A model generated the notes under the pieces. That model was not told the DNA's origin and did not search any database. It worked only from the letters and a program-made list of their open reading frames with translations. From Gadus chalcogrammus (lineage: Eukaryota; Chordata; Actinopteri; Gadiformes; Gadidae): a DNA stretch of 64,000 nt. A program made the position numbers and the translations under genes. Below are positions 3,327 to 49,082 of this stretch, piece after piece. The stretch covers positions 15,840,938-15,904,937 of the forward strand of contig NC_079413.1 of assembly GCF_026213295.1 (NCBI RefSeq), read 5' to 3'. How positions within the stretch are numbered: the first letter of the stretch is position 1; each line of letters starts with the position of its first letter.

Positions 3327-3488
3327 AGGGGTCCAAGCCAACAGGTTGGATCCCTATTGTTTTTGTAAGGATTCTTATTAGGGGTCCAAGCCAACAGGTT
3401 GGATCCCTATTGTTTTTGTAAGGATTTTTCTTTTTAGGGGTCCAAGCCAACAGGTTGGATCCCTATTGTTTTTGTAAGGATTTTTATT
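3327..3488 (+). repeat. Three solo family-A 5' ends
   Basis: Blocks start at 3327, 3380 and 3436. Each has the stem AGGGGTCCAA / TTGGATCCCT (one mismatch) around a CCAAC-AG-GTTGG inner hairpin, then CTATTGTTTTTGTAAGGATT. No body follows before the next 5' end. Confidence 0.9.
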
Positions 3489-4360
3489 AGGGGTCCAAGC
3501 CAACAGGTTGGATCCCTATTGTTTTTGTAAGGATTATTATTATTATTATTTCGTACGCCTTAGAAGTGGTACCACAGCCCAAACCGTAAATGGTGCACAC
3601 GCGCCAATTACATGACTAGAACCAGGTCCGGCACCGCTACTCAGATAACAAAATCCAGACACGCCGGTCCCTAAGTGGCTCTATACCAAGGAATACGCGT
3701 TTGGGGCTATAACTCCCACACCGAACCTCCCAGAGTCCAAAAACTTGTACCCACAGATGCACTGGAGTCTGCTGCATCTTTTGGCCTAGGCCACGCCCAT
3801 TTGCGTCCATGAATATTTTTCGCTAAATCGCAAAAACCGCAAAACAGTTTTTTCCCTACTCCTCCCACATTTCTTGACCAATCAACACAAAACTTTGCAC
3901 ACGACATCGTCAGACGCACACGCAAAGAAATCCTAGACACTTTTTTGATCCGAACTTCGACGACGAAACGGTAGCGTTTTGAATATTTGTTTATTAGCTA
4001 CGTTTTACGTCGAAACGCAAAAAATTAAAAAAATACCAAAATTAGTCATCAGATCAAGTCCAAATTTTTGACACATGTTGATGCTACCCCTACTGGCGTT
4101 CAATAAAATAATCGGAATATTTCGCCATAAGGGGGCGCAATAAACGAGGAAATTGTATATCTTCGACAAAATCTCGCCGCAAAAACGCTACACTGACTTC
4201 CCGCTACTCCTACCACAGTCAAATCCTTTGTATCCACAGGTTCAGGGTAGCGTTTTGAACACATGCTTCGCATTGTGCCGGCGAAATGCACATTTCTTGT
4301 CGCGTTGTGCCGGCGAAATGCACACTTCTTGGACCCCTGCATAACTGCTTGCAGTTCTAG
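3489..4360 (+). mobile_element. Family A copy, type S, complete
   Basis: Has its own 5' block, a TTATTATT tract, the body starting TCGTACGCCTTAG, and a canonical CTAG end. It is almost identical to 33870-34741, which has the same 872-bp length, implying a shared duplication. Its CTCF-like core is degenerate (CTAAGTGGCTCT). Confidence 0.88.
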
Positions 4361-4365
4361 TTATT

Positions 4366-4684
4366 AGGGGTCCAAGCCAACAGGTTGGATCCCTATTGTT
4401 TTTGTAAGGATTTTTTAGGGGTCCAAGCCAACAGGTTGGATCCCTATTGTTTTTGTAAGGATTTTTAGGGGTCCAAGCCAACAGGTTGGATCCCTATTGT
4501 TTTTGTAAGGATTTTTAGGGGTCCAAGCCAACAGGTTGGATCCCTATTGTTTTTGTAGTGTTTATTATTTTTAGGGGTCCAAGCCAACAGGTTGGATCCC
4601 TATTGTTTTTGTAGCGATTATTATTAGGGGTCCAAGCCAACAGGTTGGATCCCTATTGTTTTTGTAATGATTTTTCTTTTTATT
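4366..4684 (+). repeat. Six solo family-A 5' ends in a row
   Basis: Blocks begin at 4366, 4417, 4467, 4517, 4573 and 4626, spaced 50-56 bp and separated only by T-runs or short TTATT tracts. A seventh block at 4685 carries a body. This is the densest 5'-end stack in the window. Confidence 0.9.
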
Positions 4685-5659
4685 AGGGGTCCAAGCCAAC
4701 AGGTTGGATCCCTATTGTTTTTGTAAGGATTTTTTTTATTATACTTCCTACCAAGAAAGTGGTACCACAGCCCAGACCGTAAATGGTGCCGACATGCCAA
4801 TTGCATGACTAGATCCAGGTCCGTGAAGACTATTCAGACGACAAAATCCAAAATTTTCGGAATATTTCGCCATTAGGGGGCGCAATAAACGAGGAAATTG
4901 TATATCTTCTTATTGGCCAAAGGAATGTTCTTCAAACTCAAAGGAAACCATCAAGGGGCAAACCCGAGTCTATATAAAAAATATGGCCAAGAATTATTAA
5001 TGTGGGCGGGAGTTATTTGGCAAAGGAAAAATGTCTTTGGAAAATTTCGCCACAAGGGGTCGCAAATAAACGACGAAATAATATATCTCCTAACTGGCCA
5101 ATGGAATGTTCTGAAAACGCGTTTTAGGCTATAACTCCCACACCGAAGCTCCCACAGTCAAAAACGTTATACGCACAGATTCACTGGAGTCAGCTGCATC
5201 CTTTGGCATAGGCCAGGCCCATTTGCGTCAGTATTTTCTTTATGCAAAATCGCAAAAAACAGCTAAACTGCCTTTTCGCTACTCCTCCCACATTTCTTGC
5301 CCAATTGACACCAAACTTTGCACACGACATCTTCAGACGCACACTACAAGAAATCAGCAAAACTATTTTGATCCGACCATCGTTGACGAAACGGTAGCGT
5401 TTTGAATATATGTTTTGCGTTGCAAATCAGTAAAAACTATTTTGATCCAACGACGACTAAACGGTAGCGGAAAATGCGTTTGGGGCCGAAACTCCCACAC
5501 TGAACCTCTCACAGTCAAAACCTTTATATCCACAGGTTGTTCACGGTAGCGTTTTGAATACTTGGTTCGCGTTGTGCCGGCGAAATGCACATTTCTTGTC
5601 GCGTTGTGCCGGCGAAATGCACACTTCTTGGACCCCTGCATAACTGCTTGCAGTTCTAG
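4685..5659 (+). mobile_element. Family A copy, type L2 with central deletion
   Basis: The first body module is lost: the sequence jumps near 4850 from the 'gacgacaaaatcca' stretch to 'aaattttcggaatatttcgcc'. The long L2 tail follows, with two further CTCCCACA modules and a canonical 3' hairpin. Because of the deletion it lacks the CTCF-like site of other copies. Confidence 0.85.
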
Positions 5660-5661: not shown

Positions 5662-5825
5662 AGGGGTCCAAGCCAACAGGTTGGATCCCTATTGTTTTTG
5701 TAAGGATTTTTTTAGGGGTCCAAGCCAACAGGTTGGATCCCTATTGTTTTTGTAAGGATTTTTTTTATTATTAGGGGTCCAAGCCAACAGGTTGGATCCC
5801 TATTGTTTTTGTAAGGATTATTATT
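5662..5825 (+). repeat. Three solo family-A 5' ends
   Basis: Blocks begin at 5662, 5714 and 5773; the next block (5826) leads into a body. Linkers are T-runs and one TTATTATT. Confidence 0.9.
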
Positions 5826-6869
5826 AGGGGTCCAAGCCAACAGGTTGGATCCCTATTGTTTTTGTAAGGATTTTTCTTTTTATTATTATTTTTATACTTA
5901 CCCCCTTAAAAGTGGTACCACAGCCCAAACCGTAAATGGTGCACACACGCCAATTACATGACTAGATCCAGATCTCTTCGGACTACGCAGACGACAAAAT
6001 CCAGACACGCCGGCCACTAGGTGGCGCTATACCAGGGAATACGCGTTTGGGGCTATAACTCCGACACCGAACCTCCCAGAGTCCAAAAACTTGTACACAC
6101 AGATGCACTGGAGTCTGCTGCATCTTTTGGCCTAGGCCACGCCCATTTGCGTCTATGAATATTTTTCGCTATATCGCGAAAACCGCAAAACTGTTTTTTC
6201 GCTACTCCTCGCACATTTCTTGACCAATCAACACCAATCTTTGCACACGGCATCTTCAGACGCACACGCAAAGAAATCATATACAGTTTTTTGATCCGAC
6301 CTTCGACGACGAAACGGTAGAGTTTTGAATATTCTTTTATTAGCTAAATTAGACGTGGAAAATCAAAAATCCCAAAAAATCAAAAATAGACATCGGATCG
6401 AGTCCAAATTTTAGACACATGTCGGAGCTACCCTTACTGGCGTTCACTAAAGAATTCGGAATATTTCGCCATTAGGGGGCGCAATAAACGAGGAAATTGT
6501 ATATCTTCTAATTGGCCAAAAGAATGTTCTTCAAACTATAAGGGAACCATCAAGGGGCAAACCCGAGTCTATATAAAAAATATGGCCAAGAATTATTAAT
6601 GTGGGCGGGAGTTATTTGGCAAAGGAAAATTGTCTTTGGAAAATTTCGCCACAAGGGGGCGCAAATAAACGACGAAATAATATATCTCCTAACTGGCCAA
6701 TGGAATGTTCTGAAAACGCGTTTTAGGCTATAACTCCCACACCGAAGCTCCCACAGTCAAAAACGTTATATCCACAGATTCACTGGAGTCAGCTGCATCT
6801 TTTGGCATACGCCGTTCCTCAATTTCGAACACATGCTTCGCGTTGTGCCGGCGAAATGCACACTTCTTG
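5826..6869 (+). mobile_element. Family A copy, type L1, alternative 3' end
   Basis: Has its own 5' block and an exact CTCF-like core at 6014. It stops at TGTGC-CGGCGAAAT-GCACA-CTTCTTG and is followed by TTATTATT, so it lacks the usual GGACCCC and terminal hairpin. Confidence 0.83.
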
Positions 6870-7686
6870 TTATTATTATTCCAGCACTAAAAGTGTGCCC
6901 ACAGCCCAAACCGTAAATGTTGCACACACGCCAATTGCATGACTAGATCCAGGTCAGTGAAGACTATGCAGACGACAAAATCCAGACACGCCGGCCACTA
7001 GGTGGCGCTATACCAAGGAATACGCGTTTGGGGCTATAACTCCCACACCGAACCTCCCACAGTCCAAAAACTTGTACACCCAGATGCACTGGAGTCTGCT
7101 GCATCTTTTGGCCTAGGCCACGCCCATTTGCGTCTATGAATATTTTTCGCTAAATCGCGAAAACCGCAAAACTGTTTTTTCCCTACTCCTCCCACATTTC
7201 TTGACCAATCGACACCAAACTTTGCACACGACATCTTCAGACGCACACGCATAGAAATCTTAGACAGTTTTTTGATCCGACCTTCGACGACGAAACGGTA
7301 GAGTTTTGAATATTGGTTTATTAGCTAAATTAGACGTGGAAAATTAAAAATCCAAAAAAATCCAAAATTAGACATCGGATCGAGTCCAAATTCTACACAC
7401 ATGTTGGTGCTAACCTTAATGACGTTCGATAAAAATTTCGGAAAATTCCGCCATTAGGGGGCGCAATAAACGAGGAAGTTGTATATCTTCTACAAAATTT
7501 CGCCGCGAAAACGCCACACTGACTTCTCGCTACTCCTACCACAGTCAAATCCTTTGTATCCACAGGTTCAGGGTAGCGTTTTCAACACATGCTTCGCGTT
7601 GTGCCGGCGAAATGCACATTTCTTGTCGCGTTGTGCCGGCGAAATGCACACTTCTTGGACCCCTGCATAACTGCTTGCAGTTCTAG
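6870..7686 (+). mobile_element. Family A copy, type S, without its own 5' end
   Basis: Starts TTATTATTATTCCAGCAC and ends canonically. CTCF-like core at 6995. This copy and the next closely match 31922-33400, so they were copied together. Confidence 0.85.
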
Positions 7687-7688
7687 TT

Positions 7689-8754: not shown

Positions 8755-9769
8755 TTCCTATTATTCTTACCCCCCTAAAAGTGGGACCACAGCCCAAACC
8801 GTAAATGGTGCCGACACGCGAATTGCATGACTAGATCCAGATCTGTTCGGACTAAGCAGACGACAAAATCCAGACGCGCCGGTCACTAGGTGGCGCTATA
8901 CCAAGGAATACGCGTTTGGGGCTATAACTCCCACACCGAACCTCCCACATTCAAAACCTTGTACACACAGATGCACTGGAGTCTGCTGCATCTTTTGGCA
9001 TAGGCCACGCCCATTTGCGTCTATGAATATTTTTCGCAAAATCGCGAAAACCGCAAAACAGTTTTTTCCCTACTCCTCCCACATTTTTTGACCAATCAAC
9101 ACCAACCTTTGCACACGACATCTTCAGACGCACACGCAAAGAAATTATCGGACAGTTTTTTGATCCGACCGTCGACGACGAAACGGTAGCGTTTTGAATA
9201 TTGGTATATTAGCTAAATTAGACGTGGAAAATCAAAAATCCAGAAAGATCCAAAAGTAGACATCGGAACGAGTCCAAATTTTACATACATGTTGGTGCTA
9301 ACCTTAATGTCGTTCAATAAAATTTTCGGAATATTTCGCCATTAGGGGGCGCAATAAACGAGGAAATTGTATATCTTCTTATTGGCCAAAGGAATGTTCT
9401 TCAAACTCAAAGGAAACCATCAAGGGGCAAACCCGAGTCTATGTACAAAATATGGCCAAGAATTATTAATGTGGGCGGGAGTTATTTGGCAAAGGAAAAT
9501 TGTCCTTGGAAAATTTCGCCACAAGGGGTCGCAAATAAACGACGAAATAATATATCTCCTAACTGGCCAATGGAATGTTCTGAAAACGCGTTTTGGGCTA
9601 TAACTCCCACACCGAAGCTCCCACAGTCAAAACCTTTATATCCACAGATTCACTGGAGTCAGCTGCATCTTTTGGCATACGCTGTTTCTCAATTTTTGAA
9701 CACATGCTTCGCGTTGTGCCGGCGAAATGCACACTTCTTGGACCCCTGCATAACTGCTTGCAGTTCTAG
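8755..9769 (+). mobile_element. Family A copy, type L1, without its own 5' end
   Basis: Begins TTCCTATTATTCTTACC directly after the previous CTAG and ends canonically. Its tail (TGTTTCTCAATTTTTGAAC) is shared with 19171-20167. Confidence 0.84.
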
Positions 9770-9771: not shown

Positions 9772-10614
9772 AGGGGTCCAAGCCAACAGGTTGGATCCCT
9801 ATTGTTTTTGTAAGGATTTTTCTTATTATTCTTACCCCCCTAAAAGTGATACCACACCCCAAACCGTAAATGGTGCCGACACGCAAATTGCATGACTAGA
9901 TCCAGATCTGTTCGGACTAAGCAGACGACAAAATCCAGACGCGCCGGTCACTAGGTGGCGCTATACCAAGGAATATGCGTTTGGGGCTATAACTCCCACA
10001 CCGAACCTCCCACATTCAAAACCTTGTACACACAGATGCACTGGAGTCTGCTGCATCTTTTGGCCTAGGCCACGCCCATTTCCGTCTATGAATATTTTTC
10101 GCTAAATCGCGAAAACCGTAAAACTATTTTTTCCCTACTCCTCCCACATTTCTTGACCAATCGACACCAAACTTTGCACACGGCATCTTCAGACGCACAC
10201 GCAAAGAAATCTTAGACAGTTTTTTGATCCAACCTTCGACGACGAAACGGTAGAGTTTTGAATATTTGTTTATTAGCTAAATTAGACGTGGAAAATCAAA
10301 AATCCAAAAAAATCCAAAAGTAGACATCGGATCGAGTCCTAATTCTACGCACATGTCGGTGCTACCCTTAATGGCGTTCAATAAAGAATTCGGAATATTT
10401 CGCCCTTAGGGGGCGCAATAAACGAGGAAATTGTATATCTTCTAATTGGCCAAAAGAATGTTCTTCAAACTATAAGGGAACCATCAAGGGGCAAACCCGA
10501 GTCTATATAAAAAATATGGCCAAGAATTATTAATGTGGGCGGGAGTTATTTGGCAAAGGAAAATTGTCTTTGGAAAATTTCGCCACAAGGGGGCGCAAAT
10601 AAACGACGAAATAA
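9772..10614 (+). mobile_element. Family A copy, type L1, 3'-truncated
   Basis: Own 5' block. The body breaks at GACGAAATAA, where complete copies continue with TATATCTCC, and joins TTTTTATTATACTTCC of the next copy. There is no 3' hairpin of any kind, so this looks like deletion or recombination rather than an alternative end. Confidence 0.8.
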
Positions 10615-11434
10615 TTTTTATTATACTTCCTACCAAGAAAGTGGGAATACAGCCCATACCGTAAATGTTGCACACACGCCAATTGCATGACTAGATCCAG
10701 GTCAGTGAAGACTATGCAGACGACAAAATCCAGACACGCCGGCCACTAGGTGGCGCTATACCAAGGAATACGCGTTTGGGGCTATAACTCCCACACCGAA
10801 CCTCCCACAGTCCAAAGACTTGTACACCCAGATGCACTGGAGTCTGCTGCATCTTTTGGCCTAGGCCACGCCCATTTGCGTCTATGAATATTTTTCGCTA
10901 AATCGCGAAAACCGCAAAACTGTTTTTTCCCTACTCCTCCCACATTTCTTGACCAATCGACACCAAACTTTGCACACGACATCTTCAGACGCACACGCAT
11001 AGAAATCTTAGACAGTTTTTTGATCCGACCTTCGACGACGAAACGGTAGAGTTTTGAATATTGGTTTATTAGCTAAATTAGACGTGGAAAATTAAAAATC
11101 CAAAAAAATCCAAAATTAGACATCGGATCGAGTCCAAATTCTACACACATGTTGGTGCTAACCTTAATGACGTTCGATAAAAATTTCGGAAAATTCCGCC
11201 ATTAGGGGGCGCAATAAACGAGGAAATTGTATATCTTCTACAAAATTTCGCCGCTAAAACGCCACACTGACTTCTCGCTACTCCTACCACAGTCAAATCC
11301 TTTGTATCCACAGGTTCAGGGTAGCGTTTTCAACACATGCTTCGCGTTGTGCCGGCGAAATGCACATTTCTTGTCGCGTTGTGCCGGCGAAATGCACACT
11401 TCTTGGACCCCTGCATAACTGCTTGCAGTTCTAG
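10615..11434 (+). mobile_element. Family A copy, type S, without its own 5' end
   Basis: Body opening ATACTTCCTACCAAG, CTCF-like core at 10743, canonical end. Nearly the same sequence recurs at 29401-30228 and 31922-32741. Confidence 0.85.
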
Positions 11435-12865: not shown

Positions 12866-13554
12866 TTATTATTATTCCCCCCTAGAAGTGGGTCCACAGC
12901 CCAAACCGTAAATGGTGCCGACACGCCAATTGCATGACTAGATCCAGGGCCCTGAGTTCTAAGCAGACGACCAAATCCAGACACGCCGGCCACTAGGTGG
13001 CGCCATACCAAGGAAAGACGCGTTTGGGACTATAACTCCCACACCGAACCTCCCACATTCAAAACCTTGTACACACAGATTCACTGGAGTCTGCTGCATC
13101 TTTTGGTATAGGCCACGCCCATTTGCGTCTATGAATATTTTTCGCTAAATCGCGAAAACCGCAAAACTGTTTTTTCGCTACTCCTCGCACATTTCTTGAC
13201 CAATCAACACCAACCTTTGCACACGGCATCTTCAGACGCACACGCAAAGAAATCATATACAGTTTTTTGATCCGACCTTCGACGACGAAACGGTAGAGTT
13301 TTGAATATTCTTTTATTAGCTAAATTAGACGTGGAAAATTAAAAAACCAAAAAATTCCAAAATTAGACATCGGATCGAGTCCAAATTTTAGACACATGTT
13401 GGTGCTAACCTTATTGACCTTCGATAAAAATTTCGGAAAATTTCGCCATTAGGGGGCGCAATAAACGAGGAAATTGTATATCTTCTACACTTGTCGCGTT
13501 GTGCCGGCGAAATGCACACTTCTTGGACCCCTGCATAACTGCTTGCAGTTCTAG
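12866..13554 (+). mobile_element. Family A copy, type S, internally deleted, no 5' end
   Basis: Only 689 bp. The sequence passes from TATATCTTCTAC straight to ACTTGTCGCGTTGTG, removing about 130 bp before the terminal hairpins. CTCF-like core at 12990. Confidence 0.84.
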
Positions 13555-15297: not shown

Positions 15298-16117
15298 TTC
15301 TTATTATTCTTACCCCCCTAAAAGTGGGCCCACACCCCAAACCGTAAAAGGTGCCGACACGCGAATTGCATGACTAGATCCAGATCTCTTCGGACTACGC
15401 AGACGACCAAATCCAGACACGCCGGCCACTAGGTGGCGCTATACCAAGGAATACGCGTTTGGGGCTATAACTCCCACACCGAACCACCCAGAGTCCAATA
15501 ACTTGTACACACAGATGCACTGGAGTCTGCTGCATCTTTTGGCCTAGGCCACGCCCATTTGCGTCTATGAATATTTTTCGCTAAATCGCGAAAACCGCAA
15601 AACTGTATTTTCGCTACTCCTCCCACATTTCTTGACCAATCAACACCAAACTTTGCACACGGCATCTTCAGACGCACACGCAAAGAAATCTTAGACAGTT
15701 TTTTGATCCGACCTTCGACGACGAAACGGTAGAGTTTTGAATATTTGTTTATTAGCAAAATTAGACGTGGAAAATTAAAAATCCAAAAAAATCCAAAATT
15801 AGACATCGGATCGAGTCCAAATTCTACACACATGTTGGTGCTAACCTTAATGTCGTTCGATAAAAAATTCGGAAAATTTCGCCATTAGGGGGCGCAATAA
15901 ACGAGGAAATTGTATATCTTCTACAAAATTTCGCCGCGAAAACGCTACACTGACTTCTCGCTACTCCTACCACAGTCAAATCCTTTGTATCCACAGGTTC
16001 AGGGTAGCGTTTTGAACACATGCTTCGCGTCGTGCCGGCGAAATGCACATTTCTTGTCGCGTTGTGCCGGCGAAATGCACACTTCTTGGACCCCTGCATA
16101 ACTGCTTGCAGTTCTAG
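15298..16117 (+). mobile_element. Family A copy, type S, without its own 5' end
   Basis: Very close to the S copy at 36117-36985, including the shared changes GAACCACCCAGAG and CAAAACTGTATTTTCGC. CTCF-like core at 15426; canonical end. Confidence 0.86.
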
Positions 16118-17500
16118 TTATTATTATTATTATTATTCCCCCCTAGAAGTGGGTCCACAGCCCAAACCGTAAATGGTGCCGACACGCCAATTGCATGACT
16201 AGATCCAGGTCCCTGAGTTCTAGGCAGACGACAAAATCCAGACACGCCGGCCACTAGGTGGCGCTATACCAAGGAAAGACGCGTTTGCGGCTATAACTCC
16301 CACACCGAACCTCCCACATTCAAAACCTTGTACACACAGATTCACTGGAGTCTGCTGCACCTTTTGGCATAGGCCACGCCCATTTGCGTCCATGAATATT
16401 TTTCGCTAAATCGCGAAAACCGCAAAACAGTTTTTTCCCTACTCCTCCCACATTTCTTGACCAATCAACACCAAACTTTGCACACGACATCTTCAGACGC
16501 ACACGCAAAGGAATCATCAACAGTTTTTTTATCCGACCTTCGACGAAGAAACGGAAGCGTTTTGAATATTTGTTTATTGGCTACGTTTTACGTCGAAACG
16601 CAAAAATTCAAAGAATACCAAAAGTAGACGTCGGATCAAGTCCAAATTTTAGACACATGTCGGTGCTACCCTTAATGGCGTTCAATAAAGAATTCGGAAT
16701 ATTTCGCCATTAGGGGGCGCAATAAACGAGGAAATTGTATATTTTCTAATTGGCCAAAGGAATGTTCTTCAAACTATAAGGGAACCATCAAAGGGCAAAC
16801 CCGAGTCTATATAAAAAATATGGCCAAGAATTAATAATGTAGGCGGGAGTTATTTGGCAAAGGAAAATTGTCTTTGGAAAATTTCGCCAACAGGGCGGCG
16901 CCAAAAAACGACGAAATAATATATCTCCTATTTGGCCAATGGAATGTTCTGAAAACGCGTTTTAGGCTATAACTCCCACACCGAAGCTCCCACAGTCAAA
17001 AACGTTATACGCACAGATTCACTGGAGTCAGCTGCATCTTTTGGCATAGGCCAGGCCCATTTGCGTCAGTATTTTCTTTATGCAAAATCGCAAAAACAGC
17101 TAAACTGCCTTTTCGCTACTCCTCCCACATTTCTTGCCCAATTGACACCAAACTTTGCACACGACATCTTCAGACGCACACTACAAGAAATCAGCAAAAC
17201 TATTTTGATCCGACCATCGTTGACGAAACGGTAGCGTTTTGAATATATGTTTTGCGTTGCAAATCAGTAAAAACTATTTTGATCCAACCGTCGACGACTA
17301 AACGGTAGCGGAAAATGCGTTTGGGGCCGAAACTCCCACACTGAACCTCTCACAGTCAAAACCTTTATATCCACAGGTTGTTCACGGTAGCGTTTTGAAT
17401 ACTTGGTTCGCGTTGTGCCGGCGAAATGCACATTTCTTGTCGCGTTGTGCCGGCGAAATGCACACTTCTTGGACCCCTGCATAACTGCTTGCAGTTCTAG
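16118..17500 (+). mobile_element. Family A copy, type L2, without its own 5' end
   Basis: Starts with a long TTATTATTATTATTATT tract directly after CTAG. CTCF-like core at 16251. Ends canonically with two hairpin units. Confidence 0.86.
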
Positions 17501-33811: not shown

Positions 33812-33813
33812 TT

Positions 33814-33869
33814 AGGGGTCCAAGCCAACAGGTTGGATCCCTATTGTTTTTGTAAGGATTATTATTATT
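33814..33869 (+). repeat. Solo family-A 5' end
   Basis: One block with a TTATTATT linker before the next 5' end at 33870. Confidence 0.9.
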
Positions 33870-36052: not shown

Positions 36053-36116
36053 TTGGGTGTCAAGCAACTATGTTGCGAGACAACCTATTGTTATTGTACG
36101 AATTCTTATTATTATT
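36053..36116 (+). repeat. Solo family-B 5' end
   Basis: B 5' block with TTATTATTATT tract, into which one complete family-A element (36117-36985) is inserted. The B body resumes at 36986, so this is the clearest single nesting event in the array. Confidence 0.9.
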
Positions 36117-36985
36117 AGGGGTCCAAGCCAACAGGTTGGATCCCTATTGTTTTTGTAAGGATTTTTCTTATTATTATTCTTACCCCCCTAAAAGTGGGCC
36201 CACACCCCAAACCGTAAAAGGTGCCGACACGCGAATTGCATGACTAGATCCAGATCTCTTCGGACTACGCAGACGACCAAATCCAGACACGCCGGCCACT
36301 AGGTGGCGCTATACCAAGGAATACGCGTTTGGGGCTATAACTCCCACACCGAACCACCCAGAGTCCAATAACTTGTACACACAGATGCACTGGAGTCTGC
36401 TGCATCTTTTGGCCTAGGCCACGCCCATTTGCGTCGATGAATATTTTTCGCTAAATCGCGAAAACCGCAAAACTGTATTTTCGCTACTCCTCCCACATTT
36501 CTTGACCAATCAACACCAAACTTTGCACACGGCATCTTCAGACGCACACGCAAAGAAATCTTAGACAGTTTTTTGATCCGACCTTCGACGACGAAACGGT
36601 AGAGTTTTGAATATTTGTTTATTAGCAAAATTAGACGTGGAAAATTAAAAATCCAAAAAAATCCAAAATTAGACATCGGAACGAGTCCAAATTCTACAGA
36701 CATGTTGGTGCTAACTTTAATGACGTTCCATAAATTTCGGACAATTTCGCCGTTAGGGGGCGCTATAAACGAGGAAATTGTATATATTTTACAAAATTTC
36801 GCCGCGAAAACGCTACACTGACTTCTCGCTACTCCTACCACAGTCAAATCCTTTGTATCCACAGGTTCAGGGTAGCGTTTTGAACACATGCTTCGCGTTG
36901 TGCCGGCGAAATGCACATTTCTTGTCGCGTTGTGCCGGCGAAATGCACACTTCTTGGACCCCTGCATAACTGCTTGCAGTTCTAG
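36117..36985 (+). mobile_element. Family A copy, type S, complete, inside a B element
   Basis: Own 5' block and canonical end, flanked on both sides by parts of one B2 element. CTCF-like core at 36296. Small deletions here fuse minus-strand frames into a spurious 210-residue reading frame. Confidence 0.88.
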
Positions 36986-38599
36986 TTATTATTATTATGC
37001 TGCCATTGGAGTCAATGGCAGCCCATAGAACCGCTTGGCGAAAAGTTGTGAAATTTGGCACACTTGTTCAGGACAGCCCCATTAGCCCATTAAGCCAATC
37101 TCAGGTTGCTAGCCCAACAGCTCTAGCGCCACCAACAGGTCAAAGTTGGACATGCATTCATGTTCATAACTTTCGACCTATTCGACCAATAATCACAAAC
37201 CAGGTATCATTGGATTCCTTGAACCAAGCCCAGTTCAACACACCCTATGACGTCATTGTGCCATGACGTATATTTCCGCCATCTTGGTTTATGTCAAAAA
37301 CCTTCAAAATGCTACTTCTATCACAAATCTTGTCCAATCATCTCGAAACTTGGCACACATGATCTTCTGGCCATGCTTGATAAAAAACATCGAATAGATT
37401 TGTCAAATTCAAAACCGTTTGTCCGCTAAAGCCAATCAAATTTAACCGCCAAGTTGCCAAACCGGAAGTAAGCCCATATCTCTGAAGCCCTTTGACCTAT
37501 CATAACCAACCTTGGTAGAGAGACCCATGACCGCATCACGGTGACACTGAATGAATTTGGTGACCCTTGACCTCTAGGTGGCGCTGTTATTAATGTCGAT
37601 GTGTTTTGACTCCTCTCTCTTCACATGAGTACATTTAAAACTTATTTTCAATGTCTGGTGATACTATCAGACCTCCCCATATAGCTCATATATTACGTCT
37701 TGCAGAAATATCCGCGACAGCCAATGATATTCGAGCGCGAAGCCGGAAAACCGGAAACACGCCAATATCTCTGCAGCCCTTTGACATATCATAACCAAAC
37801 TTGATACATTGACCCATAACATAATCATGGGAACAATCAAAGAATTTGGTGACCATTGACCGCTAGGGGGCGCTATAATTAATGAAGACGTGTTTTAACT
37901 CCTCTCTCTTCACATGAGTACATTTCAAACTTATTTTCAATGTCTGATGATACTGTCAGACCTACTCATATAGCTTATAAATTATTTCTCATTGCAACAT
38001 CAGAACTTGGCCGCCATGTTGAAAGTTGTCAAAATCAGTTGTAAATTCCCACAGGCCACAAATTATGTCCAATCTTCATGAAACTCTGCATATATGATCT
38101 TCAGACCAAGCTGAACTAATGTGTTAAACAGCTTTCTCAAATTCAAAACCGTTTGGCCGTGACAGGCAATCAAACTTGACGGCGCTCATTAATGGGTAGA
38201 CACTGCACTCGTGTGGCGATAAGCGGTACTTAATGTATAATGCAACAATGACTATATTTACCATTCCGCCCACTTAAAATATAAACTGCAATTCCCACTG
38301 GATCAGATGCTTCACGAACCACCTCCAGAAGGGATGCTTGTTTACATGGTGTCTCTTTTAGGGATATTGTTCCGAATACCCCTATGTATTTGTGACATTT
38401 GTTCTGTCAGGCAGACTGCATTGCGCCCTTACCTCTAGGTGGGGTCCTTTTTCCCATTTACTCATCCCACCGGCTGTCGGTATTGCCGATTTCCGAGGCG
38501 GTCGTCATGTAGCCCCCTGGCCAAATGCGTCCATCCGGCAGAATTAGCCTACCGAGTCCGATTATGCTTGACACCCACATTGCTGCTCGCAGCTATATT
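36986..38599 (+). mobile_element. Family B2 body (5' end at 36053)
   Basis: Same long form as 26604-28277. CRE at 37248-37255. The 3' hairpin is followed directly by another B 5' end. Confidence 0.88.
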
Positions 38600-39897
38600 T
38601 GGGTGTCAAGCAACTATGTTGCGAGACAACCTATTGTTATTGTACGAATTCTTATTATTATTATTATTATTATGCTGCCATTGGAGTCAATGGCAGCCCA
38701 TAGAACCGCTTGGCGAAAAGTTGTGAAATTTGGCACACTTGTTCAGGACTGCCCCATTAGCCCAATAAGCCAATCTAAGGTCGCTAGCCCAACAGCTCTA
38801 GCGCCACCAACAGGTCAAAGTTGGGCATGCATTCATGTTCATAACTTTTGACCTATTCGACCAATTTTCACAAACCAGGTATCATTGGATTCCTTGAACC
38901 AAGCCCAGTTCAACACATCCTATGACGTCATTGCGCCATGACGTATATGTCCGCCATCTTGGTTTATGTCAAAAACCTTCAAAATGCTACTCCTATCACA
39001 AATCTTGTCCAATCATCTCGAAACTTGGCACACATGATCTTCTGGCCATCCTTGATGAAAAACATCGAATAGATTTGTCAAATTCAAAACCGTTTGCCCG
39101 CTAAAGCCAATCAAATTTGGCGGCGAAGCCGCCAAACAGGAAGTGAGCCGATTTCTCAGCATCCCTTTGACATATCATAACCAGACTTGGTATATAGACC
39201 CATGGCCTCATAAAGGTGACACTGATTTAATTTGGTGACCTTTGACCTGTAGGGGGCGCTGTTATTAATGTCCATGTGTTTTGACCTCTTTCCCTTCACA
39301 TGAGTACATTTACAACTTATTTTCAATGTCTGGTGATACTATCAGACCTCCCCGTATAGCTAGTATATTATAACTTGCACAAATATCCGCGACAGCCAAT
39401 GATATTCAACCGCGATGCCGCCAAACTGGAAAAACGCCAATATCTCAGTATCCCTTGGACAAATCATAACCAAACTTGATACCTAGACCCATAACATCAT
39501 TATGGGGACACTCAATGAATTTGGTGACCATTGACCTCTAGGGGGCGCTATAATTAATGAAGACGTGTTTTAACTCCTCTCTCTTCACATGAGTACATTT
39601 CAAACTTATTATCAATGTTTAATGATACTGTCAGACCTCCCCATATATCTTGTAAATTATTTTGTTGATATTGTTCCGAATACCCCTATGTATTTGTGAC
39701 ATTTGTTCTGTCAGGCAGACTGCATTGCCCCCTTACCTCTAGGTGGGGTCCTTTTCCCATTTACTCATCCCACCGGCTGTCGGTATTGCCGATTTCCGAG
39801 GCGGTCGTCATGTAGCCCCCTGGCCGATTGCGTCCATCCGGCAGAATAAGCCTACCGAGTCCGATTATGCTTGACACCCACATTGCTGCTCGCAGCT
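38600..39897 (+). mobile_element. Family B copy, complete
   Basis: Close to 25242-26544, sharing the ATACCTAG variant. CRE 38923-38930, DR1 39236-39248. So B2 followed by B occurs here, and B followed by B2 at 25242-28277. Confidence 0.89.
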
Positions 39898-40727
39898 ATA
39901 TTTATTATTATTATTATTTCGTACGCCTTAGAAGTGGTACCACAGCCCAAACCGTAAATGGTGCACACGCGCCAATTGCATGACTAGATCCAGAATCGGC
40001 ACCGCTACTCAGATAACAAAATCCAGACACGCCGGTCCCTAGGTGGCGCTATACCAAGGAATACGCGTTTGGGGCTATAACTTCCACAACGAACCTCCCA
40101 GAGTCCAAAAACTTGTACACACAGATGCACTGGAGTCTGCTGCATCTTTTGGCCTAGGCCACGCCCATTTGCGTCTATGAATATTTTTCGCTAAATCGCG
40201 AAAACCGCAAAACTGTTTTTTCGCTACTCCTCCCACATTTCTCGCCCGATCAACACCAAACTTTGCACACGACATCTTCAGATGCACACGCAAAGAAATC
40301 CTAGACACTTTTTTGATCCGACCTTCGACGACGAAACGGTAGCGTTTTGAATATTTGTTTATTAGCTAAATTAGACGTGAAAAGTAAAAAATCCGAAGAA
40401 ATCCAGAATTATACATCGGATCGAGCCCAAATTTTACAGACATGTTGGTGCTAACCTTAATGACGTTCGATAAAAATATCGGAAAATGTCGCCATTAGGG
40501 GGCGCAATAAACAAGGAAATTGTATATCTTCTACAAAATTTCGCCGCGAAAACGCTACACTGACTTCTCGCTACTCCTACCACAGTCAAATCCTTTGTAT
40601 CCACAGGTACAGGGTAGCGTTTTGAACACATGCTTCGCGTTGTGCCGGCGAAATGCACATTTCTTGTCGCGTTGTGCCGGCGAAATGCACACTTCTTGGA
40701 CCCCTGCATAACTGCTTGCAGTTCTAG
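39898..40727 (+). mobile_element. Family A copy, type S, without its own 5' end
   Basis: Follows the B hairpin through a TTATTATTATT tract. Carries the CTCGCCCGATCAACACC variant. Canonical end. Confidence 0.86.
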
Positions 40728-42475: not shown

Positions 42476-43234
42476 TTATTATTATACTTCCTACCAAGAA
42501 AGTGGGAATACAGCCCATACCGTAAATGTTGCACACACGCCAATTGCATGACTAGATCCAGGTCAGTGAAGACTATGCAGACGACAAAATCCAGACTCGC
42601 CGGCCACTAGGTGGCGCTATACCAAGGAATACGCGTTTGGGGCTATAACTCCCACACCGAACCTCCCACAGTCCAAAAACTTGTACACACAGATGCACTG
42701 GGGTCTGCTGCATCTTTTGGCCTAGGCCACGCCCATTTGCGTCTATGAATATTTTTCGCTAAATCGCGAAAACCGCAAAACTGTTTTTTCCCTACTCCTC
42801 CCACATTTCTTGACCAATCGACACCAAACTTTGCACACGACATCTTCAGACGCACACGCATAGAAATCTTAGACAGTTTTTTGATCCGACCTTCGACGAC
42901 GAAACGGTAGAGTTTTGAATATTGGTTTATTAGCTAAATTAGACGTGGAAAATTAAAAATCCAAAAAAATCCAAAATTAGACATCGGATCGAGTCCAAAT
43001 TCTACAAACATGTTGGTGCTAACCTTAATGACGTTCGATAAAAATTTCGGAAAATTCCGCCATTAGGGGGCGCAATAAACGAGGAAATTGTATATCTTCT
43101 ACAAAATTTCGCCGCGAAAACGCCACACTGACTTCTCGCTACTCCTACCACAGTCAAATCCTTTGTATCCACAGGTTCAGGGTAGCGTTTTCAACACATG
43201 CTTCGCGTTGTGCCGGCGAAATGCACATTTCTTG
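42476..43234 (+). mobile_element. Family A copy, type S, no 5' end, alternative 3' end
   Basis: CTCF-like core at 42604. Terminates at the first internal hairpin, GCACATTTCTTG, followed by TTATACTTCC of the next body. Confidence 0.84.
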
Positions 43235-44606
43235 TTATACTTCCTTCCCTAAAAGTGGGCCCACACCCCAAACCGTAAATGGTGCGGACACGCCAATTGC
43301 ATGACTAGATCCAGGTCTGTGATGTGTACGCAGACGACAAAATCCAGACATGCCGGCCACTAGGTGGCGCTATACCAAGGAATACGCGTTTGGGGCTATA
43401 ACTCCCACACCGAACCTCCCACAGTCAAAAACGTTATACCCACAGATGCACTGGAGTCTGCTGCATCTTTTGGGCTAGGCCACGCCCATTTGCGTCTATG
43501 AATATTTTTCGCTAAATCGCGAAAACCGCAAAACAGTTTTTTCCCTACTCCTCCCACATTTCTTGACCAATCAACACCAAACTTTGCACACGACATCTTC
43601 AGACGCACACGCAAAGGAATCATCAACAGTTTTTTGATCCGACCTTCGACGACGAAACGGTAGCGTTTTGAATATTTGTTTATTGGCTACGTTTTACGTC
43701 AAAACGCAAAAATTCAAAGAATACCAAAAGTAGACGTCGGATCAAGTCCAAATTTTAGACACATGTCGGTGCTACCCTTAATGGCGTTCAATAAAGAATT
43801 CGGAATATTTCGCCATTAGGGGGCGCAATAAACGAGGAAATTGTATATCTTCTAATTGGCCAAAGGAATGTTCTTCAAACTATAAGGGAACCATCAAGGG
43901 GCAAACCCGAGTCTATATAAAAAATATGGCCAAGAATTAATTATATAGGCGGGAGTTATTTGGCAAAGGAAAATTGTCTTTGGAAAATTTCGCCAACAGG
44001 GCGGCGCCAAAAAACGACGAAATAATATATCTCCTATTTGGCCAATGGAATGTTCTGAAAACGCGTTTTAGGCTATAACTCCCACACCAAAGCTCCCACA
44101 GTCAAAAACGTTACACGCACAGATTCACTGGAGTCAGCTGCATCTTTTGGCATAGGCCAGGCCCATTTGCGTCAGTATTTTCTTTATGCAAAATCGCAAA
44201 AACAGCTAAACTGCCTTTTCGCTACTCCTCCCACATTTCTTGCCCAATTGACACCAAACTTTGCACACGACATCTTCAGACGCACACTACAAGAAATCAG
44301 CAAAACTATTTTGATCCGACCATCGTTGACGAAACGGTAGCGTTTTGAATATATGTTTTGCGTTGCAAATCAGTAAAAACTATTTTGATCCAACCGTCGA
44401 CGACTAAACGGTAGCGGAAAATGCGTTTGGGGCCGAAACTCCCACACTGAACCTCTCACAGTCAAAACCTTTATATCCACAGGTTGTTCACGGTAGCGTT
44501 TTGAATACTTGCTTCGCGTTGTGCCGGCGAAATGCACATTTCTTGTCGCGTTGTGCCGGCGAAATGCACACTTCTTGGACCCCTGCATAACTGCTTGCAG
44601 TTCTAG
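43235..44606 (+). mobile_element. Family A copy, type L2, without its own 5' end
   Basis: CTCF-like core at 43357. Close to 11437-12865, including the unusual TTATATAGGCGGG/TAATATAGGCGGG spot. Canonical end. Confidence 0.86.
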
Positions 44607-45423
44607 TTTTTATACTTCCTACCAAGAAAGTGGTACCACAGCCCAAACCGTAAATGGTGCCGACACGCCAATTGCATGACTAGATCCAGGTCAGTGAAGA
44701 CTATGCAGACGACAAAATCCAGACACGCCGGCCACTAGGTGGCGCTATACCAAGGAATACGCGTTTGGGGCTATAACTCCCACACCGAACCTCCCACAGT
44801 CCAAAAACTTGTACACACAGATGCACTGGAGTCTGCTGCATCTTTTGGCCTAGGCCACGCCCATTTGCGTCTATGAATATTTTTCGCTAAATCGCGAAAA
44901 CCGCAAAACTGTTTTTTCCCTACTCCTCCCACATTTCTTGACCAATCGACACCAAACTTTGCACACGACATCTTCAGACGCACACGCATAGAAATCTTAG
45001 ACAGTTTTTTGATCCGACCTTCGACGACGAAACGGTAGAGTTTTGAATATTGGTTTATTAGCTAAATTAGACGTGGAAAATTAAAAATCCAAAAAAATCC
45101 AAAATTAGACATCGGATCGAGTCCAAATTCTACACACATGTTGGTGCTAACCTTAATGACGTTCGATAAAAAATTCGGAAAATTCCGCCATTAGGGGGCG
45201 CAATAAACGAGGAAATTGTATATCTTCTACAAAATTTCGCCGCGAAAATGCCACACTGACTTCTCGCTACTCCTACCACAGTCAAATCCTTTGTATCCAC
45301 AGGTTCAGGGTAGCGTTTTCAACACATGCTTCGCGTTGTGCCGGCGAAATGCACATTTCTTGTCGCGTTGTGCCGGCGAAATGCACACTTCTTGGACCCC
45401 TGCATAACTGCTTGCAGTTCTAG
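44607..45423 (+). mobile_element. Family A copy, type S, without its own 5' end
   Basis: The CTAG is followed by TTTTTATACTTCC rather than TTATT, so the linker is unusually short. CTCF-like core at 44732; canonical end. Confidence 0.85.
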
Positions 45424-45425: not shown

Positions 45426-46469
45426 AGGGGTCCAAGCCAACAGGTTGGATCCCTATTGTTTTTGTAAGGATTTTTATTATTATTATTATTATACTTCCTT
45501 CCCTAAAAGTGGGCCCACACCCCAAACCGTAAATGGTGCGGACACGCCAATTGCATGACTAGATCCAGGTCTGTGATGTGTACGCAGACGACAAAATCCG
45601 GACACGCCGGTCACTAGGTGGCGCTATACCAAGGAATACGCGTTTGGGGCTATAACTCCCACACCGAACCTCCCACAGTCAAAAACGTTATACCCACAGA
45701 TGCACTGGAGTCTGCTGCATCTTTTGGGCTAGGCCACGCCCATTTGCGTCTATGAATATTTTTCGCTAAATCGCGAAAACCGCAAAACAGTTTTTTCCCT
45801 ACTCCTCCCACATTTCTTGACCAATCAACACCAAACTTTGCACACGACATCTTCCGACGCACACGCAAAGGAATCATCAACAGTTTTTTTATCCGACCTT
45901 CGACGACAAAACGGTAGCGTTTTGAATATTTGTTTATTGGCTACGTTTTACGTCGAAACGCAAAAATTCAAAGAATACCAAAAGTAGACGTCGGATCAAG
46001 TCCAGATTTTAGACACATGTCGGTGCTACCCTTAATGGCGTTCAGTAAAGAATTCGGAATATTTCGCCATTAGGGGGCGCAATAAACGAGGAAATTGTAT
46101 ATCTTCTAATTGGCCCAAGGAATGTTCTTCAAACTATAAGGGAACCATCAAGGGGCAAACCCGAGTCTATATAAAAAATATGGCCAAGAATTATTAATGT
46201 GGGCGGGAGTTATTTGGCAAAGGAAAATTGTCTTTGGAAAATTTCGCCACAAGGGGTCGCAAAAAAACGACGAAATAATATATCTCCTAACTGGCCAATG
46301 GAATGTTCTCAAAACGCGTTTTGGGCTATAACTCCCACAACGAACCTCCCACAGTCAAAACCTTTATATCCACAGATTCACTGGAGTCAGTTGCATCTTT
46401 TGGCATAGGCCAAGCCCATTTGTTTTGAACACATACTCCGCGTTGTGCCGGCGAAATGCGCACTTCTTG
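45426..46469 (+). mobile_element. Family A copy, type L1, alternative 3' end
   Basis: Own 5' block, the last one in the array. Ends at GTGCCGGCGAAATGCGCACTTCTTG, then TTCCTATTATTATT. The core resembles 11437, but the tail resembles 7689-8754. Confidence 0.83.
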
Positions 46470-47956
46470 TTCCTATTATTATTCCAGCAATAAAAGTGTG
46501 CCCACAGCCCAAACCGTAAATGGTGCCGACACGCCAATTGCATGACTAGATCCAGGTCCGTGAGGTGACGGCAGACGACAAAATCCAGACATGCCGGCCA
46601 CTAGGTGGCGCTATACCAAGGAATACGCGTTTGGGGCTATAACTCCCACACCGAACCTCCCACATTCAAAACTTTAGACACACAGATGCACTGGAGTCTG
46701 CTGCATCTTTTGGCCTAGGCCACGCCCATTTGCGTCTATGAATATTTTTCGCTAAATCGCGAAAACCGCAAAACTGTTTTTTCCCTACTCCTCCCACATT
46801 TCTTGACCAATCGACACCAAACTTTGCACACGACATCTTCCGACAAACACGCAAAGGAATCATCAACAGTTTTTTTATCCGACCTTCGACGACGAAACGG
46901 TAGCGTTTTGAATATTTGTTTATTGGCTACGTTTTACGTCGAAACGCAAAAATTCAAAGAATACCAAAAGTAGACGTCGGATCAAGTCCAGATTTTAGAC
47001 ACATGTCGGTGCTACCCTTAATGGCGTTCAATAAAGAATTCGGAATATTTCGCCATTAGGGGGCGCAATAAACGAGGGAATTGTATATCTTCTAATTGGC
47101 CAAAGGAATGTTCTTCAAACTATAAGGGAACCATCAAAGGGCAAACCCGAGTCTATATAAAAAATATGGCCGAGAATTAATAATGTAGGCGGGAGTTATT
47201 TGGCAAAGGAAAATTGTCTTTGGAAAATTTCGCCAACAGGGCGGCGCCAAAAAACGACGAAATAATATATCTCCTATTTGGCCAATGGAATGTTCTGAAA
47301 ACGCGTTTTAGGCTATAACTCCCACACCGAAGCTCCCACAGTCAAAAACGTTATACGCACAGATTCAATGGAGTCAGCTGCATCTTTTGGCATAGGCCAG
47401 GCCCATTTGCGTCAGTATTTTCTTTATGCAAAATCGCAAAAACAGCTAAACTGCCTTTTCGCTACTCCTCCCACATTTCTTGACCAATTGACACAAAACT
47501 TTGCACACGGTATCTTCAGACGCACACGCAAAGAAATCATCAACAGTTTTTTGATCCGACCTTCGACGACGAAACGGTAGAGTTTTGAATATTTGTTTAT
47601 TAGCTAAATTAGACGTGGAAAATTAAAAATCCAAAAATATCCAAAATTAGACATCGGATCGAGTCCAAATTCTATACACATGTTAATGCTAACCTTAATG
47701 ACGTTCGATAAAAATTTCGGAAAATTTCGCCATTAGGGGGCGTCATAAACGAGGAAATTGTATATCTTCTAAAAAAAATTGCCGCGAACTGACTTCTCGC
47801 TACTCCTACCACAGTCAAATCCTTTGTATCCACAGGTTCAGGGTAGCGTTTTGAACACATGCTTCGCGTTGTGCCGGCGAAACGCACATTTCTTGTCGCG
47901 TTGTGCCGGCGAAATGCACACTTCTTGGACCCCTGCATAACTGCTTGCAGTTCTAG
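46470..47956 (+). mobile_element. Family A copy, chimeric L2/S, without its own 5' end
   Basis: L2 head with CTCF-like core at 46598, joined near 47500 to an S tail, parallel to 17615-19170. Canonical end. Confidence 0.82.
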
Positions 47957-48725
47957 TTATTATTATTATTATTATTTCGTACGCCTTAGAAGTGGTACCA
48001 CAGCCCAAACCGTAAATGGTGCACACGCGCCAATTGCATGACTAGATCCAGAATCGGCACCGCTACTCAGATAACAAAATCCAGACACGCCGGTCCCTAG
48101 GTGGCGCTATACCAAGGAATACGCGTTTGGGGCTATAACTTCCACAACGAACCTCCCAGAGTCCAAAAACGTGTACACACAGATGCACTGGAGTCTGCTG
48201 CATCTTTTGGCCTAGGCCACGCCCATTTGCGTCTATGAATATTTTTCGCTAAATCGCGAAAACCGCAAAACTGTTTTTTTCGCTACTCCTCCCACATTTC
48301 TCGCCCGATCAACACCAAACTTTGCACACGACATCTTCAGATGCACACGCAAAGAAATCCTAGACACTTTTTTGATCCGACCTTCGACGACGAAACGGTA
48401 GCGTTTTGAATATTTGTTTATTAGCTAAATTAGACGTGAAAAGTCAAAAATCCGAAGAAATCCAGAATTATACATCGGATCGAGCCCAAATTTTACAGAC
48501 ATGTTGGTGCTAACCTTAATGACGTTCGATAAAAATATCGGAAAATTTCGCCATTAGGGGGCGCAATAAACAAGGAAATTGTATATCTTCTACAAAATGT
48601 CGCCGCGAAAACGCTACACTGACTTCTCGCTACTCCTACCACAGTCAAATCCTTTGTATCCACAGGTACAGGGTAGTGTTTTGAACACATGCTTCGCGTT
48701 GTGCCGGCGAAATGCACATTTCTAG
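47957..48725 (+). mobile_element. Family A copy, type S, no 5' end, alternative 3' end
   Basis: Stops at the first internal hairpin, which here reads GCACATTTCTAG and is followed by TTTTTTGATCC. So the internal hairpin is followed by CTAG instead of CTTG in this one copy. Confidence 0.8.
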
Positions 48726-49082
48726 TTTTTTGATCCGACCTTCGACGACGAAACGGTAGAGTTTTGAATATTTGTTTATTAGCTAAATTAGACGTGGAAA
48801 ATTAAAAATCCAAAAAAATCCAAAATTAGACATCGGATCGAGTCCAAAATCTACACACATGTTTATGCTAACCTAAATGTCGTTGGATAAAAATTTCGCC
48901 GCGAAAACGCTACACTGACTTCTCGCTACTCCTACCACAGTCAAATACTTTGTATCCACAGGTTCAGGGTAGCGTTTTAAACACATGCTTTGCGTTGTGC
49001 CGGCGAAACGCACATTTCTTGTCGCGTTGTGCCAGCGAAATGCACACTTCTTGGACCCCTGCATAACTGCTTGCAGTTCTAG
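48726..49082 (+). mobile_element. Family A 3' half, last copy of the array
   Basis: Begins inside the body at TTTTTTGATCCGACC and ends canonically with CTAG at 49082. A further deletion fuses GATAAAAATTTCGCC to GCGAAAACGC. Single-copy sequence resumes with TTCTGGATTGTC. Confidence 0.84.

What the first reader, a model, noticed from the sequence alone, without database searches (positions are those of the whole stretch)
3327..49082. The 45.8-kb array obeys a parenthesis grammar: repeated insertion into the element's own microsatellite
By hand count family A has 38 five-prime ends and 37 bodies. Nineteen five-prime ends are solo and 18 bodies have none. Family B has 3 solo five-prime ends and 2 bodies without one. 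Scoring each 5' end +1 and each body end -1, the running total never goes below zero from left to right in either family. This is what results if each new element lands in the TT-rich microsatellite about 50 bp inside an older element: the old 5' block is stranded upstream and the old body downstream. The order of ends is then a last-in-first-out record of insertion history. The case 36053-38599 (B 5' end, one whole A, B body) shows a single step cleanly. The match is not perfect locally: between 20224 and 22685 there are four A opens and two closes.
Basis: partly seen in the sequence, partly recalled or inferred. Interest (0 to 1): 0.88.

Follow-up and report, generated by a model that had tools for sequence, protein, structure and literature searches.

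The report
Self-nesting rolling-circle transposon array
A 45.8-kb stretch of this genome is built from two families of short elements resembling the known Helentron-type (HINE) transposons, which likely kept landing in the TT-rich linker just inside their own left end, so that heads and bodies are separated; the order of the pieces does not, however, read as the strict insertion history that was proposed.

Summary
Observation confirmed: array 3327-49082 holds 38 A heads (19 solo), 37 A tail segments (18 without a head), 7 B heads (3 solo) and 6 B bodies (2 headless), one orientation; the running total never goes negative. Anatomy is HINE-like. Insertion into the element's own linker is shown in both split B elements: left and right remnants rebuild the exact 24-letter linker of three of four intact B copies. 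Seventeen of 18 A break points lie in linkers, which hold about 9% of TT sites.

The 'parenthesis grammar' is weaker. Non-negativity alone has p 0.10-0.15 for A and 0.5 for B; the left-right polarity of heads is unusual (p 0.0001, or 0.009 with runs kept together). Last-in-first-out partners share linker types no more than random partners (1-2 of 14; p 0.83-0.95). One B frame has four A heads for two bodies, and one 3' half lacks its 5' half. Depth cannot be dated: termini carry no substitutions. Best reading: targeted self-nesting plus rolling-circle by-products (multi-headed composites, early termination, end-to-end joins). New variant of a known kind; one locus only.

The parts
3327..49082 (+). 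whole array of A and B element pieces, all heads on the + strand
   Evidence: no match to the flanks
3327..3535 (+). run of 4 A heads (3 solo: 3327, 3380, 3436; the 4th, 3489, has its body)
4366..4731 (+). run of 7 A heads (6 solo: 4366-4626; the last, 4685, has its body)
5662..5872 (+). run of 4 A heads (3 solo; the last, 5826, has its body)
17503..17661 (+). run of 3 A heads (2 solo; the last, 17615, has its body)
20170..20216 (+). solo A head directly before B head 20226
20226..20275 (+). B head split from its body 22704 by A insert
   Evidence: linker rebuilt exactly
20282..20446 (+). 3 solo A heads inside the B frame (20282, 20341, 20400), with only one headless body (21335) to match
22686..23931 (+). 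headless B body, partner of head 20226
23938..26543 (+). two whole B elements in tandem, same TTTATT junction before each
26547..26596 (+). extra B head; shares variants and linker prefix with the next head 26606 (local duplication or self-insertion)
26606..28271 (+). whole long-type B element
33814..33860 (+). solo A head before whole A element 33870
36055..36104 (+). B head split from body 36998 by one whole A element
   Evidence: linker rebuilt exactly
36117..36985 (+). whole A element nested in B
36986..38597 (+). headless B body, partner of head 36055
38601..39900 (+). whole B element
6870..7686 (+). headless A tail
8755..9769 (+). headless A tail
10614..11434 (+). headless A tail behind a deletion junction in body 9843 (start approximate)
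12866..13554 (+). headless A tail
15298..17500 (+). two headless A tails in a row (15321, 16147)
19171..20165 (+). headless A tail with cut 3' end (stops at CATAA)
21318..22685 (+). headless A tail inside the B frame
31102..32741 (+). two headless A tails in a row (31125, 31945)
34742..36052 (+). headless A tail ending early at TTCTTG|TT
39901..40727 (+). headless A tail behind B
42476..45423 (+). three headless A tails in a row (42499 ending early at TTCTTG|TT, 43252, 44627)
46470..48725 (+). two headless A tails in a row (46493; 47990 ending early at TTCTAG|TT)
48726..49082 (+). 3' half of an A body starting inside a T run; no tail in the array stops at that T run
5826..6869 (+). headed A element ending early at TTCTTG|TT
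45426..46469 (+). headed A element ending early at TTCTTG|TT
3489..3535 (+). example A head: hairpin AGGGGTCCAA/TTGGATCCCT, followed by the TT-rich linker
4328..4360 (+). example A 3' end: subterminal repeat CTTGGACCCCT plus terminal inverted repeat and CTAG; last 32 bp identical in 30 of 30 full 3' ends

Best explanation
The array is made of HINE-like rolling-circle transposon pieces in which new copies are inferred to have inserted repeatedly, same strand up, at TT sites of the TT-rich linker between an older copy's 47-bp head and its body, likely together with other rolling-circle by-products that blur the insertion order. Shown: both split B elements rebuild the exact intact linker when the insert is taken out; A break points lie almost only in linkers; all heads have one orientation; termini are invariant while bodies belong to many subfamilies. 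Inferred: the linker offers TT on one strand only, which would fix orientation and seed further insertions; replication started at an outer head and stopped at the first 3' end would make multi-headed copies without matching bodies; tails that stop at TTCT(T/A)G behind a small inverted repeat would be early terminations; tail-to-head joins of the form CTAG-TT-AGGGG would be insertions at the TT beside an existing end. The result would be a string of separable heads and tails, not a clean nesting record.
For: Exact 24-letter linker rebuilt in 2 of 2 split B elements, equal to 3 of 4 intact B linkers; a rough chance estimate assuming uniform remnants is 1/64. Seventeen of 18 A break points lie in linkers, which hold 8.9% of TT sites (p 2e-17; 16 of 17 without the deletion junction 10638, p 2e-16), and no A body is split by another element except at the T run before 48726. 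Every solo A head's linker ends in TT before the next head and every headless A tail other than 10638 starts with TT. Left remnants average 2.6 triplets against 5.0 in the 19 intact A linkers, as breaks inside a linker would give. Fourteen of 19 same-family head-to-head linkers are not prefixes of the next linker, so most solo heads come from different elements. Heads lie left and headless tails right more than shuffled (p 0.0001 / 0.0086). Five of seven tails with an abnormal 3' end stop exactly at TTCT(T/A)G|TT. Published precedent: multiple 5' termini explained by Helitron self-insertion and stopping at the first 3' end (PMC5148889, passages).
Against: A string of 38 heads and 37 tails in random order would give similar counts of head-head and tail-tail neighbours, so counts alone do not show nesting (reasoning, no call). 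Stack partners do not match in linker type. In a random-site nesting simulation 41% of tail-head spacers are bare TT, against 14 of 15 observed, and 19 tail-head joins are expected against 15, so linker insertion alone does not fit. No multi-headed series of linkers is seen twice here, so composite transposition is inferred mainly from imbalance. No other array, empty host site or genome copy could be examined (genome search did not complete), and assembly error is not excluded.
Confidence: 0.6

Rival explanations
1. Strict in-place nesting: every solo head has its own body in this array and the order is a last-in-first-out record.
For: Running total never negative; it ends at +2, and at 0 when two of the three solo heads of the frame 20226-22704 are set aside; polarity p 0.0001-0.0086; both B frames exact.
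Against: Stack partners match in 1-2 of 14 scored pairs, no better than random, against 12 of 16 among intact copies (P of 2 or fewer: 3e-6 at 0.75, 6e-3 at 0.5). Head 20341 carries the head variant and linker start of element 13557, whose body is at least 2.9% from every headless body here. One 3' half has no 5' half. Caution: several tags rest on one intact reference.
Confidence: 0.1
2. Microsatellite-mediated shuffling: unequal exchange or slippage between TT-rich linkers duplicates and deletes the 50-bp heads, leaving solo heads and headless bodies without insertion.
For: Break points would also lie in linkers; 5 of 19 head-to-head linkers are prefixes of the next one, as a local duplication would give, including B head 26547. 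Near-identical B units at 22686-26605 suggest some tandem duplication.
Against: 14 of 19 are not prefixes; both B frames rebuild the exact linker around A sequence; no reason for polarity.
Confidence: 0.2
3. Pre-formed units: multi-headed and multi-tailed composites, formed elsewhere by end bypass or first-end termination, were inserted whole, so balance of heads and tails is accidental.
For: Uninterrupted runs of 4, 7 and 4 heads; longest run 7 against 4.4 expected for in-place nesting (p 0.026); unbalanced B frame; the piece 48726-49082 lacks a 5' half. Some stretches alike across joins: 6901-8630 and 31956-33686 are 98.0% identical over a tail, a bare-TT join, a head and most of the next body; the order two heads, body, headless long body occurs at 20398-22625 and 33812-36053 (94.9%; bodies 7.6% and 2.6% apart). 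Precedent in PMC5148889 (passages).
Against: No multi-head series of linkers recurs; one headless junction string recurs (31945, 42499) but behind bodies 6.4% apart; polarity and near balance are unexplained.
Confidence: 0.25
4. Plain rolling-circle concatemers from read-through of one element.
For: Joins of a full A 3' end to an A head are bare TT in 14 of 15 cases; B units at 22686-26605 are near-identical in tandem; tandem Helitrons are known (PMC4067079 passages).
Against: Directly joined A neighbours are not alike (mean distance 0.108 vs 0.118 shuffled, p 0.23; 1 of 14 under 2%); does not make solo heads.
Confidence: 0.05

Closest known systems
HINE / DINE-1 non-autonomous Helentrons (Thomas et al. 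2014, PMC4067079; Vojvoda Zeljko et al. 2020, PMC7492417)
   Same: 5' subterminal repeat with complementary inverted repeat, short microsatellite after the head, 3' subterminal repeat plus terminal palindrome, TT-rich target (passages read)
   Different: Those passages describe dispersed, clustered or satellite-bearing copies; in them I saw no description of family members landing in each other's linker or of strings of solo heads and headless bodies
Fusarium FoHeli Helitrons with multiple 5' termini (PMC5148889)
   Same: Several 5' termini with one 3' terminus, explained by self-insertion and then transposition from the outer 5' end to the first 3' end (passages)
   Different: There short 5' duplications in individual elements; here 19 solo A heads and 18 headless A tails in one 46-kb locus, with break points almost confined to a linker
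Tandem Helitron arrays (bat, silkworm: PMC4067079; plant centromeres: PMC5148889; inner copies cut at the 3' end: PMC7492417; all as cited in passages)
   Same: Head-to-tail clusters, inner copies sometimes cut at the 3' end
   Different: Directly joined A neighbours here belong to different body subfamilies (1 of 14 pairs under 2%), and heads are split from bodies
Double insertion of transposable elements as a satellite seed (McGurk and Barbash 2018; title seen only in a reference list)
   Same: Insertion beside an existing copy gives tandem joins (recalled)
   Different: Recalled for elements with other mechanisms; not read here

Membership tests
HINE (non-autonomous Helentron) | 5' subterminal repeat with nearby complementary inverted repeat | tested here: met
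   A head folds as a hairpin, z -3.7; B head z -3.5
HINE (non-autonomous Helentron) | matching 3' subterminal repeat | tested here: met
   AGGGGTCCAAG / CTTGGACCCCT and GGGTGTCAAGC / GCTTGACACCC seen directly; 30 of 30 full A 3' ends identical over 32 bp
HINE (non-autonomous Helentron) | palindrome near the 3' terminus | tested here: inconclusive
   A: CTGCA/TGCAG stem, -3.3 kcal/mol, z -1.0; B: -2.5 kcal/mol, z 0.0; inverted repeats are present but fold no better than shuffles
HINE (non-autonomous Helentron) | microsatellite after the head | tested here: met
   triplet linker of ATT/TTT/CTT type in the 19 intact A and 4 intact B copies, one A and one B with a CCT unit
HINE (non-autonomous Helentron) | TT target | tested here: met
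   TT on both sides of the inserts in both B frames and at all solo-head and headless-tail junctions but the deletion junction 10638
HINE (non-autonomous Helentron) | no target duplication | tested here: inconclusive
   linker is rebuilt when one TT is counted once; whether that TT is the element's own or a 2-bp duplication cannot be told; no host empty site found
HINE (non-autonomous Helentron) | no ORF long enough for a Rep/helicase (length recalled) | tested here: met
   longest of the listed ORFs (110 aa or more) inside the array is 210 aa, antisense; these ORFs were not searched against families
HINE (non-autonomous Helentron) | shares ends with an autonomous Rep/helicase Helentron in the same genome | not testable with these tools
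   own-genome search unanswered in 11 tries
last-in-first-out nested record | running total never negative | tested here: met
   but p 0.08-0.15 for A by chance
last-in-first-out nested record | bracket partners belong together | tested here: not met
   A: 1-2 of 14 linker matches, as random; B: 2 of 2 match
last-in-first-out nested record | outer elements older than inner | tested here: inconclusive
   headless 0.51% vs headed 0.32% private changes, p 0.16

The most novel reading that the evidence does not exclude
The TT-rich linker behind the head is a built-in landing pad: it is preferred by the family's own copies and, because TT lies on one strand, holds all new copies in one orientation, so each insertion adds another pad and arrays grow autocatalytically; heads and tails become separable modules that are re-mobilised as multi-headed units, with a second, weaker terminator (inverted repeat plus TTCTTG) inside the tail.
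Probability: 0.35. Interest if true: 0.65.

Novelty: new variant of a known kind. Interest (0 to 1): 0.45.

Why it matters
If it holds in other loci, a dispersed rolling-circle element could build long same-orientation arrays, one route from transposon to satellite DNA, simply because it carries its own target. It would also show in sequence the multi-headed copies that the self-insertion model for Helitrons predicts, and give a natural experiment on where termination occurs. The caution matters as well: balanced brackets alone do not prove a readable insertion history.

Tried and rejected
Fuzzy-regex annotation timed out with no output and was replaced by blastn. Looking for long likeness inside the array (315 alignments of 700 bp or more, best 60 listed) gave the B tandem at 99.35% and otherwise many 89-98% stretches across joins; most fit subfamily likeness, and the two that could be shared units are told under the pre-formed-units rival. 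An empty host site in the window was not found. Copies of the head in viral contigs and prokaryote genomes, and of a 1.7-kb A stretch in plasmids and phages, gave no match; a text search for the head's first 12 letters gave two papers on unrelated subjects by title. Rejected: A concatemers of one element; head duplication as the main source of solo heads; dating by depth. The random-site nesting simulation reproduces the neighbour counts except tail-head joins, but random order would too, so I do not use it as support. Its two mean-spacer rows used observed values that I had entered by hand; the head-to-head value (3.5) was too high (2.6 on recount), and neither row is used. Literature: the listings and passages of five papers showed no description of such an element inserting into its own linker; most listed papers were not opened and the library lacks most subscription papers, so this is not proof of absence.
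Full report
WHAT IS THERE. The stretch 3327-49082 consists of pieces of two related kinds of short element; all 38 A and 7 B heads are on the + strand. Family A has a 47-bp head (AGGGGTCCAAG...GTAAGGATT), a TT-rich linker of ATT/TTT/CTT triplets, a body of several length classes and a 3' end CTTGGACCCCT...CTAG followed by TT. Family B has the same plan with GGGTGTCAAGC and GCTTGACACCC. Counts: 38 A heads, 36 A body starts plus one 3' half-body, 30 full A 3' ends, 7 B heads, 6 B bodies and 6 B 3' ends. Nineteen A heads are solo, 17 A bodies plus the half-body have no head, three B heads are solo and two B bodies are headless. The array has no match in the 18.2 kb of window outside it at E 1e-5.

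WHAT KIND OF ELEMENT. Head hairpins fold better than shuffles (z -3.7 and -3.5). Subterminal repeats, a microsatellite behind the head, a TT target and lack of long ORFs match published HINE features (PMC4067079 and PMC7492417, passages). The 3' palindromes are present but fold no better than shuffles. Absence of a target duplication and the autonomous partner could not be settled. The host is unidentified; of five flanking ORFs searched, three match transposase or retroelement domains and two match nothing. A teleost fish is my guess from recall only.

INSERTION INTO THE LINKER. In both split B elements, the left remnant plus the right remnant, counting one TT once, gives TTCTTATTATTATTATTATTATTA, the same 24 letters as three of the four intact B linkers; the fourth has 18 letters. 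With independent uniform remnants a rough chance estimate is 1/8 each. For A, 17 of 18 break points are in linkers, which hold 8.9% of the TT sites (p 2e-17). One of the 17 (10638) is a deletion junction, so 16 of 17 is the stricter count (p 2e-16). No body is interrupted by another element except at the T run before 48726. Left remnants behind solo heads average 2.6 triplets, intact A linkers 5.0. Fourteen of 19 same-family head-to-head linkers are not prefixes of the following linker, so most solo heads are remains of different elements and not local duplicates; five, including B head 26547, could be duplicates.

THE PARENTHESIS CLAIM. The running total never goes below zero, but by the ballot formula this has probability 0.15 for 19 against 17, 0.10 for 19 against 18 and 0.5 for B, and 0.084 for A with runs of heads kept as blocks. 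What is unusual is that heads lie left and headless tails right: area under the walk p 0.0001 with independent tokens, 0.0086 with runs kept together. A direct test asks whether stack partners belong together. Intact elements agree in linker type with another of the same body tag in 12 of 16 cases (three tags with one intact copy each left out). Stack partners agree in 2 of 14 scored pairs, or 1 of 14 in each of three variants that drop two of the three solo heads of the B frame; random partners agree in 2.3-2.7 on average (p 0.83-0.95 for exact matches, 0.33-0.61 for total edit distance). Three of 17 closers with tags not seen in an intact element could not be scored. Allowing losses, the best non-crossing parse has 7 exact pairs against 6.4 in shuffles (p 0.47). 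So the A order carries no detectable last-in-first-out identity signal. The test depends on linker types staying fixed, and some tags have one intact reference.

WHY THE ORDER IS BLURRED. Inside B frame 20226-22704 there are four A heads for two bodies. Head 20341 shares its head variant and linker start with the intact element 13557, whose body is at least 2.9% from every headless body in the array. The last piece, 48726-49082, is a 3' half, and no tail in the array stops where its 5' half would. These fit transposition from an outer head to the first 3' end, or past a weak 3' end, as proposed for Fusarium Helitrons (PMC5148889, passages); here this step is inferred. Stretches alike across joins (6901-8630 with 31956-33686 at 98.0%; 20398-22625 with 33812-36053 at 94.9%) may be co-mobilised units or chance neighbours of the same subfamilies. 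Seven of 37 tail segments have abnormal 3' ends: five stop at TTCT(T/A)G before TT (6869, 36052, 43234, 46469, 48725), in bodies of five different clusters; the other two stop at 20165 and in body 9843. All five stand behind GTGCC....GC(A/G)CA; in one (46469) the repeat is imperfect. The 36 bodies hold 60 TTCT(T/A)G sites with that repeat and 36 other internal ones without. The repeat itself does not fold better than shuffles, so early termination is a proposal.

TAIL-TO-HEAD JOINS. Fourteen of 15 joins of a full A 3' end to an A head are bare TT. Random-site nesting predicts 41%. Neighbours at these joins are not more alike than shuffled bodies (p 0.23; one of 14 under 2%), so they are not simple concatemers. 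Insertion at the TT beside an existing end would explain them. The B units at 22686-26605 are 99.35% identical in tandem and may be a true tandem duplication.

AGE. All 38 A heads are identical over their first 41 bp and all 30 full A 3' ends over 32 bp, while bodies of one subfamily carry about 0.46% private changes and bodies overall differ by up to 26%; zero changes in the heads has p 0.0008 at the private rate. Either the insertions are very recent and body differences are older than insertion, or ends are homogenised or constrained. Headless bodies carry slightly more private changes than headed ones (55 of 10820 vs 12 of 3750, p 0.16), in the predicted direction but not significant. That count uses 15 of 36 bodies, in three groups; the others were left out because their groups were too small.

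VERDICT. Self-insertion into the family's own linker is shown in two B cases and well supported for A; a readable last-in-first-out history is not. New variant of a known kind. The literature listings did not show this arrangement, within an open-licence library and with five papers opened in passages only. The result rests on one locus and one assembly.

Noticed in passing
6869, 36052, 43234, 46469, 48725: Five A tails of different body clusters stop exactly at TTCT(T/A)G before TT, behind a GTGC..GCAC repeat (imperfect in one), resembling the true TTCTAG|TT end: a possible second terminator.
   Followed up: partly
all A heads and full A 3' ends, 3327-49082: First 41 bp of 38 heads and last 32 bp of 30 full 3' ends have no substitutions, while bodies of one subfamily carry about half a percent private changes and bodies overall differ by up to 26%.
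   Followed up: partly
4517, 4573, 4626, 13557, 20341: All A head variation is confined to the last six bases; three of the five variant heads are consecutive in the run of seven.
   Followed up: no
22686-26605: B units in tandem at about 1306-bp spacing, 99.35% identical, with the same TTTATT junction at 23931 and 25237.
   Followed up: partly
6901-8630 and 31956-33686: Two stretches spanning a tail, a bare-TT join, a head and most of the next body are 98.0% identical: possibly a unit moved or copied together.
   Followed up: partly
3200-3326 and 49083-49250: Flanks look (from recall) like a long-terminal-repeat promoter region split by the array, with TATATAAG just upstream; no second copy in the window.
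   Followed up: partly
60415-61209 (-), 61422-61985 (-), 58442-58864 (-): DDE_Tnp_4 transposase fragment (PF13359; Harbinger-like from recall) and retroelement integrase core and RNase H fragments.
   Followed up: partly
about 10613 and 20165: Two tails are cut right after ATAA before TT, unlike the five TTCT(T/A)G cases; likely deletions.
   Followed up: no
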